Below, one piece after another: positions 39,805 through 42,790 of a DNA stretch of 58,240 nucleotides. The DNA lies in the NCBI RefSeq assembly GCF_004803635.1, contig NZ_SSWX01000025.1:1-58240 (forward strand), given 5' to 3'. A program made the translations under genes and the position numbers. A model generated the notes under the pieces. The model searched no databases. It was given only the letters and a program-made list of their open reading frames with translations, and was not told where the DNA came from. This DNA is from Lampropedia aestuarii (GTDB lineage Bacteria > Pseudomonadota > Gammaproteobacteria > Burkholderiales > Burkholderiaceae_C). How positions within the stretch are numbered: the stretch's first letter is position 1; each line of letters starts with the position of its first letter.

Positions 39805-40086
39805 TTGACCAAACCCTGCTCAGGCGGCTGGGCTGGTGCAGAAAAAGATGGGTTAATACAAGCAAGCAATCAGGCTGTCTTTAGTAGCGCGTGCATGTGC
39901 AGGATGTTGGACTTACACCCTAGCGGTTATTACGCCTGGAAGCCCAAGCCTGAGAGTGAGCGTGCCCTTGACGACCTTAGGCTGCTGGGAGGCTCAAAAC
40001 TGTCTAGTAAATACTGGTCGATTCATACTCGCTCTAACCCTTCACGCAAAACCACAGACATCTCCTCCAGTATGATTCACCTATGA
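39805..40086 (+). pseudogene. IS3-family transposase (OrfB) fragment
   Basis: A 93-codon frame whose part SSACMCRMLDLHPSGYYAWK (then PKPESERALDDLRLLG) matches the start of IS3-family OrfB transposases (MCRVLGVSRSGYYAW type). The DDE catalytic core is missing and the frame turns into unrelated sequence after about residue 65. No terminal inverted repeats were found. It is a relic at the left side of the integrated element. Confidence 0.65.
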
Positions 40087-40126: not shown

Positions 40127-40135
40127 GGAATCGAA
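40127..40135. other. Candidate left attachment core
   Basis: GGAATCGAA, identical to the T-loop sequence of tRNA-Cys at 42731-42739. ATCGAATTT occurs twice here (40110-40118 and 40130-40138). The bases to its left do not match the tRNA 3' end, so the assignment is only a possibility. Confidence 0.3.
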
Positions 40136-40159
40136 TTTATTTATATAAATTAGCTACTT

Positions 40160-40335
40160 ATCAGGGTGAGGGGAGCCATTAGGCTGTGGTTAAACCGTCG
40201 AACCCGAAGGGCTGTCCACATCAGGTTATCCACGGGCATAGCCGGTGGGTAACGTGTTGTGGTCAGGACGGCTTATCCACGGTCAACGGCGTTGGGGGCG
40301 GGGCTCCGCCTCCAGGTCACCGACTAGGTGACAGT
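40160..40335. other. Origin-like region of the mini-element
   Basis: Contains two identical DnaA-box-like 9-mers TTATCCACG (40226-40234 and 40273-40281), a weaker one CTGTCCACA (40212-40220), a GC-rich hairpin GGCGG-GGCT-CCGCC (40297-40310) and a perfect inverted repeat GTCACC-GACTA-GGTGAC (40316-40332). Together with the replication initiator downstream this suggests a replication origin; the nick site is not identified. Confidence 0.5.
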
Positions 40336-40369
40336 GGTTTCAAGTTCCCTGACCTGCTATGCTTCGCCT

Positions 40370-40747
40370 ATGTCTACACTTAAACCCATTCAAGGCAAAA
40401 CACCTCCAGCAACCGAGCAAGAGGTGCAAGAGCGCTATGCGTTGATGGACAAGGCCATCCGTCAAACAGGGCTGCAAATTGACGAGCTTGAATCAGCACT
40501 GGGTATGTACATGGTAGGCTTTCACTTTGGCTGGAAAGTGCTGCATGTCATCCACAGCAAAAAGACTATTGCCAAGTACGAAGGCATCTTAGGCATCAAG
40601 GTGCGCGAGGCTTTTCCAGAGTACGGCCCTGATGCAGATCGCACCAATGCATTCAAACTGATCAAGTCAGTTTCCAGCTTCTGGAAGCTGGTTTCAGGTG
40701 ACGAGCGCCCACCGATTCAGCTGGATAAGCGCACAATTCAAGATTAG
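40370..40747 (+). CDS. Hypothetical protein of the mini-element
   Basis: A 125-residue protein that I do not recognise. It is mainly helical and mixed-charge, with GLQIDELESALGMYMVGFHF and HVIHSKKTIAKYEGILGIKV in the centre, no signal peptide and no membrane helix. ATG 40370 is preferred over the GTG at 40328. It is directly upstream of the replication initiator gene, with 51 nt between them that contain a promoter-like and operator-like region. A regulatory or replication-accessory role is possible from position alone. Confidence 0.7.
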   Translation: MSTLKPIQGKTPPATEQEVQERYALMDKAIRQTGLQIDELESALGMYMVGFHFGWKVLHVIHSKKTIAKYEGILGIKVREAFPEYGPDADRTNAFKLIKSVSSFWKLVSGDERPPIQLDKRTIQD

Positions 40748-40750
40748 GGA

Positions 40751-40798
40751 ACTTTAAATCCCTTGACAGGAATTTTATATTCCCTTTAAATAGGGAGC
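40751..40798 (+). promoter_or_regulatory. Promoter/operator region of rep
   Basis: Contains TTGACA (40763-40768) and, 17 nt later, TTAAAT (40786-40791) as a possible -35/-10 pair. CTTTAAAT occurs twice (40752-40759 and 40784-40791), and GGAAT-TTTAT-ATTCC (40769-40783) is a perfect inverted repeat between the two hexamers. The arrangement looks like an autoregulated promoter. The AGGGAG before the ATG is only 1 nt away, unusually close for a ribosome site. Confidence 0.5.
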
Positions 40799-41695
40799 AT
40801 GAAATTCCCTATCCGTTTTACACAACCAGCGCCTAGCGCTGCTCCCGCATCTGCAAGCGCCACGCATGACGCGCAGAGGGGCCCCGCTTGCGGGGAGACT
40901 GGCGCGGCATCGGGGCGCTTGCAAGAAGCGGGCGGAACGCCTGCTTCTGGGCTTGTCAAAATATCAACAAGTGCGACGACCTATCGTGACTTCATTGAAA
41001 TTGACCCCAAAAAAACACGAGTCCAAAGACTCAGAAAAACAATTCCCTCAGCTGCTAATCTGCTGCAACAAGCCCTAGGCCCAAAACGCTACAAAGCGGC
41101 CATGATCACCTTGACCTACCGGGGTGTGGACGACTTCGAGCCCAAGCACATTTCACGCTTCTTGGACTCAGCCCGCAAGTGGATGGCAAGACGCGGCTAC
41201 AAGCTGCATTACGTGTGGGTGGCAGAGCTGCAAAAACGCGGGGCGCTTCACTACCATGTGCTGATCTGGCTACCCAAAGGCTTGACCCTGCCAAAGCCCG
41301 ATAAACAAGGCTGGTGGCCGCATGGCATGAGCAAGATTGAGTGGGCACGCAACGCAGTAGGCTATATGGTTAAGTACCTGTCGAAGATGGACAGCGAAGG
41401 AAGCTTTCCAAAAGGGTGCAGACTCAGCGGTCGTGGTGGCTTGGACGCTTCGGCACGCTCTATTTGCCGGTGGATCAATTACTCAAGCTGGCTCAAACGC
41501 ATAGCCGGTGTCAACACTCCCATCAAACGCATCAAAGGCCTTGGACTGGTCAACATGGCAAGCGGGGAAGTGCTGCGCAGTCCTTGGCAGGTCATCGTGG
41601 CAGGAGGAAAAATCATCGTTTACCAAGTCTTCGAGCTGGTCGGTGGCGTCGACTACCACGGCCCCTACTCCATGCTGAAAGAATCGCATGACTGA
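40799..41695 (+). CDS. rep: HUH-endonuclease replication initiator (dual-tyrosine, gpA type)
   Basis: A 298-residue rolling-circle replication protein. Motif I is MITLTYRG (residues 102-109), the HUH motif is HYHVLIW with His151 and His153, and motif III is GYMVKYLSK with Tyr189 and Tyr193 four residues apart, each in a YxxK unit. Paired tyrosines in this spacing are the mark of phiX174 gpA-type initiators. Residues 1-60 are Ala/Ser/Gly-rich and disordered. It would nick the origin, stay covalently bound and reseal single-stranded circles. The integrase gene overlaps its end by eight bases. Confidence 0.85.
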   Translation: MKFPIRFTQPAPSAAPASASATHDAQRGPACGETGAASGRLQEAGGTPASGLVKISTSATTYRDFIEIDPKKTRVQRLRKTIPSAANLLQQALGPKRYKAAMITLTYRGVDDFEPKHISRFLDSARKWMARRGYKLHYVWVAELQKRGALHYHVLIWLPKGLTLPKPDKQGWWPHGMSKIEWARNAVGYMVKYLSKMDSEGSFPKGCRLSGRGGLDASARSICRWINYSSWLKRIAGVNTPIKRIKGLGLVNMASGEVLRSPWQVIVAGGKIIVYQVFELVGGVDYHGPYSMLKESHD

Positions 41696-42653
41696 CAAGA
41701 TGCCGCCACGTTTGAACCAAAAGGGCCGCATGTGGTTTCACACTACCAAAGGCCGTAATCGTGTCTGGACACCTCTGTCAAGCGACCTAGAGGAAGCCAA
41801 AGTCTTATGGGCGCAGATTGAGGCCAACACCACCATAGACGCGCCAGACTCCGTATCCGAAGTCATCAAGCGCTACATGCAAGACGTGATGCCCAAAAAA
41901 GCCCCACGCACACGCAAAGACAACGAAGCAGAAATGCCCAATCTGTTGCGTGCTTTTGGTGCCATGCGCATAGGCGATGTACAGCCGTTTCATGTGCGCA
42001 AGTACATGGACCAGCGGGGCGAGTCTGCACCAGTCAGAGCCAATAGAGAAAAGGCTCTGCTCTCTCACATCTTTAACAAGGCACGTGAATGGGGCTACAC
42101 CAACACAGCCAACCCATGCCAAGGCGTGCGGGGCTTTCGTGAAACGGGCCGCACACGCTACGTGCAAGATGCAGAGTTTGCCGCTGTCAAACGTGCGGCA
42201 AGCCCTGTGGTAGCTGACGCTATGGACTTGGCGTACTTGACCGCTCAACGCCCTGCTGACCTGCTAAAAATGCAATGGGCAGATGTGTACCTTGGGGCAT
42301 TGCATGTGCGCCAGAACAAAACTGGGGCACGTCTGGCGATTGAGTTATCGGGTGATCTCGCTTCGGTCGTTGAGCGTATCCAAAGCCGTGAGGTGTCACA
42401 GAAAAGCGATTGGATTTTGCAGCGTGACAACGGCGAGGCGTTGAGCTATGCGGGGCTGTTTCAGGGCTTTGACAAAGCACGACAGGCCGCAGGCGTGATT
42501 TTCCAGTTCCGTGACATTCGCGCTAAAGCGGCTACCGATCTTGGCGACCTGGCCCACGCTCAACAGCTTTTAGGCCATAGCAAACGGGATATGACGGAAC
42601 ACTATGTCCGCTCCCGGCAAGGCATCAAAGTGATGCCACTGCGCCTTAGATAA
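41688..42653 (+). CDS. int: Tyrosine-type phage integrase
   Basis: A 321-residue site-specific recombinase. An N-terminal arm-binding part is followed by the core-binding domain (about 55-140) and the catalytic domain with Arg188 (TAQRPADLLK), Lys211 (QNKTGARL), Arg278 in FRDIRAKAATD (the usual His of HxxR is Arg here, a form seen in some phage integrases), His297 in LLGHSKRD and nucleophile Tyr306 in EHYVRS. It overlaps rep and ends 64 nt from a tRNA-Cys gene, its likely attachment site. Confidence 0.93.
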   Translation: MTDKMPPRLNQKGRMWFHTTKGRNRVWTPLSSDLEEAKVLWAQIEANTTIDAPDSVSEVIKRYMQDVMPKKAPRTRKDNEAEMPNLLRAFGAMRIGDVQPFHVRKYMDQRGESAPVRANREKALLSHIFNKAREWGYTNTANPCQGVRGFRETGRTRYVQDAEFAAVKRAASPVVADAMDLAYLTAQRPADLLKMQWADVYLGALHVRQNKTGARLAIELSGDLASVVERIQSREVSQKSDWILQRDNGEALSYAGLFQGFDKARQAAGVIFQFRDIRAKAATDLGDLAHAQQLLGHSKRDMTEHYVRSRQGIKVMPLRLR

Positions 42654-42657
42654 AAGT

Positions 42658-42675
42658 GTGTACATCAGGTGTACA
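42658..42675. repeat. Tandem GTGTACA motifs
   Basis: GTGTACA at 42658-42664 and 42669-42675, 11 bp apart and so on the same helix face, between int and tRNA-Cys. Integrase arm sites are often arranged like this. Confidence 0.4.
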
Positions 42676-42676
42676 A

Positions 42677-42708
42677 AAGGGCTTACACCTTTTAGAGTGT
42701 AAGCCCTT
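42677..42708. terminator. Terminator between int and tRNA-Cys
   Basis: Perfect 12-bp stem AAGGGCTTACAC/GTGTAAGCCCTT with an 8-nt loop; A- and T-rich flanks on both sides suggest action on both strands. Confidence 0.8.
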
Positions 42709-42716
42709 GATTTATA

Positions 42717-42790
42717 TGGAGGCGCGACCCGGAATCGAACCGGGCTAAACGGATTTGCAATCCGCTGCATAACCTCTTTGCTATCGCGCC
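42717..42790 (-). tRNA. tRNA-Cys (anticodon GCA)
   Basis: A 74-nt tRNA on the minus strand with acceptor GGCGCGA/TCGCGCC, anticodon loop TTGCAAA giving GCA, T arm CCCGGTTCGATTCCGGG and encoded CCA (42717-42719). Its 3' end faces the int gene, the usual orientation for a tRNA used as an integration site. The gene is intact. Confidence 0.96.

What the first reader, a model, noticed from the sequence alone, without database searches (positions are those of the whole stretch)
40127..42790. Minimal integrative rolling-circle element: unknown gene, dual-tyrosine HUH Rep and tyrosine integrase at tRNA-Cys
A compact unit of about 2.6 kb holds an origin-like region, a 125-residue unknown protein, a gpA-type replication initiator (HYH at 151-153; Tyr189 and Tyr193 in YMVKYLSK) and an integrase whose gene overlaps rep by 8 bases and ends next to the 3' end of tRNA-Cys. 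Dual-tyrosine initiators belong to single-stranded DNA phages such as phiX174 and to P2-like phages; pairing one with a tyrosine integrase in one operon, with no coat, secretion or relaxase gene, points to a phage satellite or a self-replicating integrated element. Motifs and order are read directly; mobility and satellite nature are inference.
Basis: partly seen in the sequence, partly recalled or inferred. Interest (0 to 1): 0.8.

Follow-up and report, generated by a model that had tools for sequence, protein, structure and literature searches.

The report
Tiny tRNA-integrated rolling-circle element
A very small mobile DNA element sits in a tRNA gene; it carries a replication enzyme of the filamentous-phage kind, an integrase and an unknown small protein, and its more complete relatives in other bacteria carry extra genes, some of which look like defences against phages.

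Summary
The genes are there as described: P1 (125 aa, unknown), Rep (HUH; both tyrosines invariant in 21 aligned Reps), a tyrosine integrase overlapping rep by 8 bp, tRNA-Cys. It is not debris of one prophage. I mapped 14 P1-Rep-Int elements; 12 are flanked by direct repeats, 11 of them read as tRNA halves (about 3.3-5.4 kb). One species has two in tandem. Of 10 genomes of the genus 3 are occupied and 5 empty beside clpX. Rep third-codon identity to L. puyangensis is 78-86%, clpX 53%, so the element moved between species. No inoviral gene matched in 13 stretches covering the 14. Cargo varies: Drt5 reverse transcriptase, TIR-like pair, ParE, HicAB, HNH. Around P1 the Rep can be of an unrelated filamentous-phage-type family and integrases differ, though P1 was also my search criterion. 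The window copy has lost its left att and cargo. Best reading: a family of integrative rolling-circle mini-elements not found described in ten paper searches, perhaps controlled by P1; spread by a helper, perhaps filamentous phage, is unproven.

The parts
39805..40086 (+). Remnant of an IS3-family transposase left of the element, where cargo and the left att would be expected
   Evidence: NF033516 transpos_IS3 1.1e-4 over 44 aa, far below its cut-off
40159..40369 (+). Conserved non-coding left core (origin region and P1 promoter)
   Evidence: 95-97% identical to the two L. puyangensis copies, 82% to L057
40186..40280 (+). Large DNA hairpin, candidate replication origin or packaging/conversion signal
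   Evidence: DNA fold z -6.07; 2 pairs change on both sides, 2 cells unpaired, among four copies; the inner motif TCCACGG..CGGTGGG recurs upstream of P1 in L002a, L002b, L057, L005, L006, L007
40316..40332 (+). Small hairpin GTCACC-GACTA-GGTGAC with covarying stem
   Evidence: 3 of 6 pairs change on both sides among four copies
40358..40363 (+). Probable -10 box (TATGCT) 6 nt before the P1 start, so P1 is probably leaderless
   Evidence: Similar box at a similar distance in most of 13 elements, read by eye; inference
40370..40747 (+). P1, 125 aa, predicted all-alpha protein of unknown function; gene shared by the elements mapped; proposed regulator
   Evidence: No family in Pfam, PHROGs or NCBIfam; AF2 pLDDT 82; no fold match under E 0.001
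40746..40795 (+). Inverted repeats AGGGAACTTTAAATCCCT (40746-40763) and CCCTTTAAATAGGG (40782-40795) around a TTGACA box before rep; proposed operators
   Evidence: Outward and inward repeats in 8 and 9 of 13 P1-Rep gaps; shuffle means 0.6 and 0.8, maxima 3 and 5
40799..41695 (+). rep: HUH rolling-circle initiator, filamentous-phage G2P type, two tyrosines
41688..42653 (+). int: tyrosine integrase
   Evidence: PF00589 8.4e-17, phrog_1 4e-43
42654..42716 (.). Stretch with terminator-like hairpin between int and the tRNA 3' end, probably element-borne
   Evidence: 87-90% identical to the L002 copies, 82% over 45 of 63 bases to L057; also present at the inner end of the tandem copy
42717..42790 (-). 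tRNA-Cys(GCA), integration target; 42717 to about 42762 is the att half
   Evidence: ARAGORN, Rfam; second halves in L057 and L002 end at the anticodon loop

Best explanation
It is a damaged copy of an integrative rolling-circle mini-element. In the more complete form (about 3.3-5.4 kb) Int recombines a circular form into the 3' half of a tRNA gene at the anticodon loop, rebuilding the tRNA and leaving the old half at the far end (repeats shown; the reaction itself inferred). After excision Rep, a filamentous-phage-type two-tyrosine HUH nuclease, should nick the origin region upstream of P1 and replicate the circle by rolling circle through single-stranded DNA (inferred from family and conserved hairpins). 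P1 is proposed to be the DNA-binding switch that sits on AGGG/CCCT repeats at the P1 and rep promoters and keeps replication low while integrated (inferred). Variable cargo, in several copies toxin-antitoxin or anti-phage genes, would pay for carriage. No transfer, coat or secretion gene was recognised, so movement between cells would need a helper. The window copy keeps origin, P1, rep, int and one att but has lost the left att and cargo, apparently beside an IS3 remnant, so it is probably stuck.
For: P1, Rep and an integrase in 14 mapped elements, 12 with flanking direct repeats: 9, L005 and L008, L110. Tandem pair with a tRNA-Cys half between them in L. puyangensis. Occupied/empty difference in the genus. 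Third-codon identity to L. puyangensis: Rep 86.2 and 77.9%, P1 76.0 and 75.2%, clpX 52.7%. No inoviral gene in 13 element stretches. HUH fold. Covarying hairpins. Rep changes next to P1: L110 has PF02486 Rep_trans 9e-28, L060's Rep groups with a 1.45-kb plasmid Rep (99/96), and one clade of element Reps is rejected, p-AU 0.0037. Repeats in the P1-Rep gap above shuffles. Cargo: Drt5 5.6e-197, ThsB TIR 6e-8, ParE 1.8e-14 and HicB 8e-18.
Against: No excision, circular form or replication was observed. The nick site was not found; a CTTGA-type site, recalled from the phiX174/pC194 group, is not conserved in 21 related loci. P1 has no fold match, and its link to the repeats is correlation: the repeat patterns were written after seeing the sequences, the outward repeat lies upstream of P1 in 6 of 13 (not in the window), the inward one in 0 of 13, and the 13 rows are not independent. 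That P1 is shared is partly by construction, since elements were accepted by having P1; 10 of the 19 Rep loci showed no P1, three of them Zot-bearing prophages by eye. The hairpin motif was not found upstream of P1 in L003, L004, L008, L017, L019 and L060. No excisionase is visible in the window copy; DUF4224 precedes int in L006, L008 (below its cut-off) and L110 and probably L060 (unscanned). The Ints of L002b, L004 and L005 are broken or split, so several copies are decaying.
Confidence: 0.75

Rival explanations
1. Satellite of filamentous phages: excised single-stranded circles are packed and exported by a co-resident inovirus, the big hairpin serving as packaging signal.
For: Rep is a homologue of the gII-type initiators of Xanthomonas filamentous phages; the second Rep type (PF02486) falls in a phage replication family, phrog_453; no coat genes matched; large hairpin. 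An autonomous plasmid as an inovirus satellite has been published (Schmid 2024; only the title seen, in the reference lists of PMC11389934 and PMC13230959; paper not held).
Against: Zot was found in 2 of 8 element-bearing genomes and not in the window's own; that profile also rings in 5 of 14 control genomes, so it is a weak marker. The inovirus-like locus of L. puyangensis has a different-looking Rep (by eye). The hairpin motif did not match in the inoviral loci among the 97 sequences.
Confidence: 0.25
2. Integrative mobilizable element: Rep or the origin is used by a co-resident conjugative element, so Rep doubles as relaxase.
For: Rep_trans-family relaxases of ICEs and IMEs are in print (PMC6499999, PMC7563843; listing and start of abstract seen). 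Size and tRNA targeting fit.
Against: No relaxase family among the proteins scanned; the six plasmid records with a related Rep are typed non-mobilizable. No oriT search was made.
Confidence: 0.2
3. Decayed remnant of an inovirus prophage that kept rep and int.
For: Rep homology to inoviruses; the window copy lacks its left end.
Against: The same small set recurs with flanking repeats in many genera; 11 of 13 element Reps form their own clade (95/94); none of 13 stretches matched an inoviral gene. In viral contigs P1 turned up once, on a 49-kb contig whose fetched 16 kb hold no Rep or Int match.
Confidence: 0.05

Closest known systems
Actinomycete AICEs such as pSAM2
   Same: [quoted passage not shown] The RepSA profile hits this Rep weakly, 8.8e-6, below its cut-off.
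   Different: AICEs have the structure att-tra-rep-int-att and live in Actinobacteria; here no transfer gene was recognised, there is P1, and Rep is of the G2P phage type.
Filamentous phages of the Cf1/Lf type; Pf phages
   Same: Homologous Rep, 37-38% identity to the Xanthomonas phages. Pf phages having their own integrase is recalled; one search listed PMC7379572 on the Pf excisionase.
   Different: No match to Zot, gIII, gV or gVI; P1 not found in the 13 viral loci fetched by Rep.
tmRNA/tRNA genomic islands with defence genes and no transfer genes (I55 family)
   Same: Tyrosine integrase, direct repeats, defence cargo, no recognised transfer genes (passages of PMC12595487).
   Different: Those are larger (an orf37 is named in I55), and the word 'rolling' does not occur in that paper; these are 3-5 kb with a rolling-circle initiator.
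1.4-1.6 kb plasmid records with little but a Rep (NZ_AP022852, NC_020503, NZ_CP048017)
   Same: Homologous Rep; one groups with L060's Rep.
   Different: No integrase annotated; no P1 match in the plasmid collection.

Membership tests
Integrative element at a tRNA gene | att direct repeats made of the tRNA 3' part | tested here: met
   For the family: repeats in 12 of 14 elements, though for L005 no tRNA was called. Not met in the window copy itself; L002a runs off its contig
Integrative element at a tRNA gene | site occupied in some genomes and empty in others | tested here: met
   3 occupied, 5 empty beside clpX, 1 at a contig end, 1 with the tRNA elsewhere, of 10 genomes of the genus; these are different species, not strains
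HUH rolling-circle initiators (REP_ORF2-G2P) | HUH motif and catalytic tyrosines on an HUH fold | tested here: met
Inoviridae | coat and Zot (gI) genes | tested here: not met
   0 of 13 element stretches against nine inoviral query proteins; 12 of 14 control loci positive, 9 of the 11 that did not supply queries
Phage satellite | packaging by a helper phage | not testable with these tools
   Zot in 2 of 8 host genomes neither shows nor excludes it
AICE | Tra DNA translocase | tested here: inconclusive
   none of the proteins scanned matched one, but not every ORF was scanned
Integrative mobilizable element | relaxase or oriT used by a helper | tested here: inconclusive
   no relaxase match among scanned proteins; oriT not searched

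The most novel reading that the evidence does not exclude
P1 is the hallmark of a widespread, undescribed class of proteobacterial mini-elements that borrow whichever filamentous-phage replication initiator is to hand, integrate at many tRNA genes, deliver defence genes, and travel as single-stranded DNA inside the virions of resident filamentous phages, with P1 as the switch that senses or holds down replication.
Probability: 0.25. Interest if true: 0.85.

Novelty: new variant of a known kind. Interest (0 to 1): 0.68.

Why it matters
It points to a family of very small mobile elements that can carry anti-phage and toxin-antitoxin genes between proteobacteria with three core genes, one of which (P1) has no family in the libraries searched and no fold match. 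The exchange of phage-type Reps next to P1 makes concrete questions testable: what P1 does, whether filamentous phages carry single-stranded defence islands, and how a 3-4 kb element can be a complete mobile unit.

Tried and rejected
Left end at 40127: rejected; only a short GGAATCGAA match to the tRNA (read), while the half expected from relatives is absent.

CCTTGAYRGG as nick site: rejected; not consistently present in 21 inovirus, plasmid and other Rep loci, so TTGACA is read as a -35 box.

P1 identity by fold: no PDB or viral hit with E under 0.001; by profile against PDB sequences only E 0.85.

Same operator upstream of P1 homologues outside the mapped elements: not found within 100 nt of the nine in L066-L071 and L073-L075, nor of L064 and L111; found upstream of P1 in element L019.

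Single origin of element Reps: rejected by AU test, p 0.0037, with long branches in play.

Literature: ten searches listed no description of P1-Rep-Int elements; the library is open-licence PMC only, so this does not prove absence.

Helper test by Zot co-occurrence: uninformative.
Full report
What is in the window. P1 40370-40747 has no family in Pfam, PHROGs or NCBIfam. Rep 40799-41695 is REP_ORF2-G2P (PF23343, 4e-36) and phrog_2969; of 11 phage records that match, 9 are Xanthomonas filamentous phages, 37-38% identical. HYH and Tyr189/Tyr193 are invariant in 21 aligned Reps. The predicted structure (mean pLDDT 76) has a HUH Rep domain as its best PDB match, E 5.9e-4, the only one under 0.001; most, not all, of the next ones are HUH Reps too. 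Int 41688-42653 is a tyrosine integrase.

The same unit elsewhere. A scan of genome contigs gave 19 loci with this Rep; 9 of them have P1 nearby and 10 do not, among the latter three Zot-bearing prophages by eye (L011-L013). With genomes from the genome search added I mapped 14 elements that have P1, a Rep and an integrase: window, L002a, L002b, L057, L003, L004, L005, L006, L007, L008, L017, L019, L060, L110. P1 was thus part of the definition. Loci L058, L059 and L061-L063 are the same places fetched again and are not counted. Direct repeats flank 12 of 14: L002b, L057, L003, L004, L006, L007, L017, L019, L060, L005 and L008, L110. In L005 no tRNA was called, and its repeats are 93% and 91% identical. 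Targets are tRNA-Cys, -Phe and -Arg by ARAGORN; tRNA-His for L008 is my reading of the repeat. The repeats run from the tRNA 3' end to about the anticodon loop. From repeat to tRNA the sizes are about 3.3 to 5.4 kb; L004 includes what looks like an inserted IS.

Mobility. L. puyangensis carries two copies in tandem at tRNA-Cys with a tRNA half between them. Of 10 genomes of the genus, three are occupied (G000, G326, G384), five have the tRNA beside clpX with none of the three genes in the fetched stretch (G263, G400, G401, G086, G188), one ends at the tRNA (G402) and one has the tRNA elsewhere (G399). These are different species; no strain-level comparison was possible. Third-codon identity between the window and the two L. 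puyangensis copies is 86.2 and 77.9% for Rep and 76.0 and 75.2% for P1, but 52.7% for clpX next door; against L057, Rep and P1 are at 53.9 and 52.0%, like clpX at 51.9%. Int looks mosaic: 75.8% DNA identity to copy a, 84.6% to copy b, while Rep is 93.9 and 90.4%. So the element moved between these two species after they parted.

The window copy is damaged. No second tRNA-Cys half lies in the window; elsewhere in the assembly the best further match is 75% over about 53 bases. Left of the core sits an IS3 remnant, a weak match. Cargo and left att are gone, so the suggested junction 40127/42735 is not expected to exist.

Origin region. The stretch 40186-40280 folds as a long hairpin, z -6.07; the counterparts in L057, L005, L006 and L007 have z -6.2, -3.5, -3.5 and -5.9. 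On four aligned copies, for this hairpin and two smaller ones together, 99% of cells pair and five pairs change on both sides (two in the large hairpin, three in the small one at 40316-40332); 1 of 500 shuffles reaches five, slid controls give at most one, and the number of further pair types is not above shuffles. The structure came from the window sequence, which favours it. The inner motif was found upstream of P1 in seven elements; L003, L004, L008, L017, L019 and L060 lack it there, and L110 was not in that search. I could not name the nick site.

P1 and exchangeable Reps. L110, from another family of the class, has P1, DUF4224 and Int but a Rep of the Rep_trans family (PF02486 9e-28). 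L064 has P1 with a weak Rep_trans match and a serine recombinase, but no flanking repeats were found there. In the Rep tree 11 of 13 element Reps form a clade (95/94), L060 joins a Sulfuricurvum plasmid Rep (99/96), L019 has a long branch of its own, and one clade is rejected (p-AU 0.0037). P1 searches, own genome included each time, matched 19 of 399 genomes of the family (single sequence, E 1e-3), 13 of 399 of the order (profile, 1e-10), 2 of 369 of the class (earlier profile, 1e-8) and 7 of 398 of the phylum (1e-8). Of 18 further P1 loci fetched, 8 have a recognisable Rep (one weak), 16 an integrase match (many weak), 11 a tRNA and 8 a direct repeat around P1; spacings reach 9 kb, one P1 has a stop inside (L145), and not all need be the same kind of element. 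Ten of the 19 family genomes have P1 homologues without a Rep or Int match in the stretch fetched; in four of the seven P1 loci that I read by eye a neighbour looks like an FTR1 iron permease (my reading, from no call). So P1 also exists outside elements.

Regulation. P1 probably starts without a leader: by eye a TATGCT-like box lies about 6-8 nt before the start in most elements. AGGG-N-CCCT repeats occur upstream of P1 in 6 of 13 (not in the window) and in the P1-Rep gap in 8 of 13; CCCT-N-AGGG in 0 of 13 and 9 of 13. Shuffle means are 0.3, 0.6, 0.3 and 0.8, maxima 3, 3, 2 and 5. The patterns were written after looking at the sequences, and related rows count several times. The repeats also occur with the unrelated Rep of L110. 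As Rep and Int differ among the elements, I propose that P1 binds them. P1 is predicted all-alpha (pLDDT 82) with no fold match.

Cargo. L005 has a Drt5 reverse transcriptase (5.6e-197) and L008 a ThsB-type TIR protein (6e-8) beside an 8xMP protein with a weak TIR match, all within their repeats. L057 has ParE (1.8e-14) and L002a a similar ORF (not scanned); L060 has HicA and HicB; L003 and L017 HNH proteins; L004 an SDH-type protease; L006 DUF2335; L019 DUF4154; L007 a weak TPR match; L002b an ORF without a family above its cut-off. In L110 a 147-aa ORF matched nothing. Two of 14 carry clear defence proteins and three toxin-antitoxin genes; the rest are open.

How it travels. None of nine inoviral query proteins (Zot, gIII, gV, gVI) matched the 13 stretches that hold the 14 elements; 12 of 14 control loci matched, or 9 of 11 when the three that supplied queries are left out. 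Zot is in 2 of 8 element-bearing genomes, a weak marker as the profile also rings in 5 of 14 control genomes. Helper packaging, mobilisation by conjugation and general transduction all remain open.

Literature. Passages only were seen of PMC11389934, PMC11630473, PMC3218068, PMC12595487 and PMC13230959; others as listings with the start of the abstract. No paper listed in ten searches describes these elements.

Noticed in passing
L066, L067, L073, L074 near 6.0-6.8 kb: P1 homologues (39-48%) occur outside any recognised element, beside what looks like an FTR1 iron permease (by eye); a host origin of P1 or a wider regulator family is possible.
   Followed up: partly
L140 and L141 (one genome, G545): Two very similar P1-Rep_trans-Int units about 100 kb apart on one chromosome contig, one near an intact tRNA-Arg.
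   Followed up: partly
L097:7971-8351: P1 (73% identity) in a 49-kb viral contig without Rep or Int matches in the 16 kb fetched.
   Followed up: no
L034, L112, L113: Plasmid records of 1.45-1.6 kb (one marked linear) with little more than a homologous G2P-type Rep in Halomonas, Sulfuricurvum and Acinetobacter.
   Followed up: partly
L010:8256-9464 and L020:7279-8403: Alteromonadaceae loci with the same Rep followed by a recombinase-like ORF and no inoviral genes noticed (both by eye); perhaps a sister type of element.
   Followed up: no
L089, left of tRNA-Cys: In G400 the same tRNA-Cys borders what looks like a type I restriction gene cluster (by eye).
   Followed up: no
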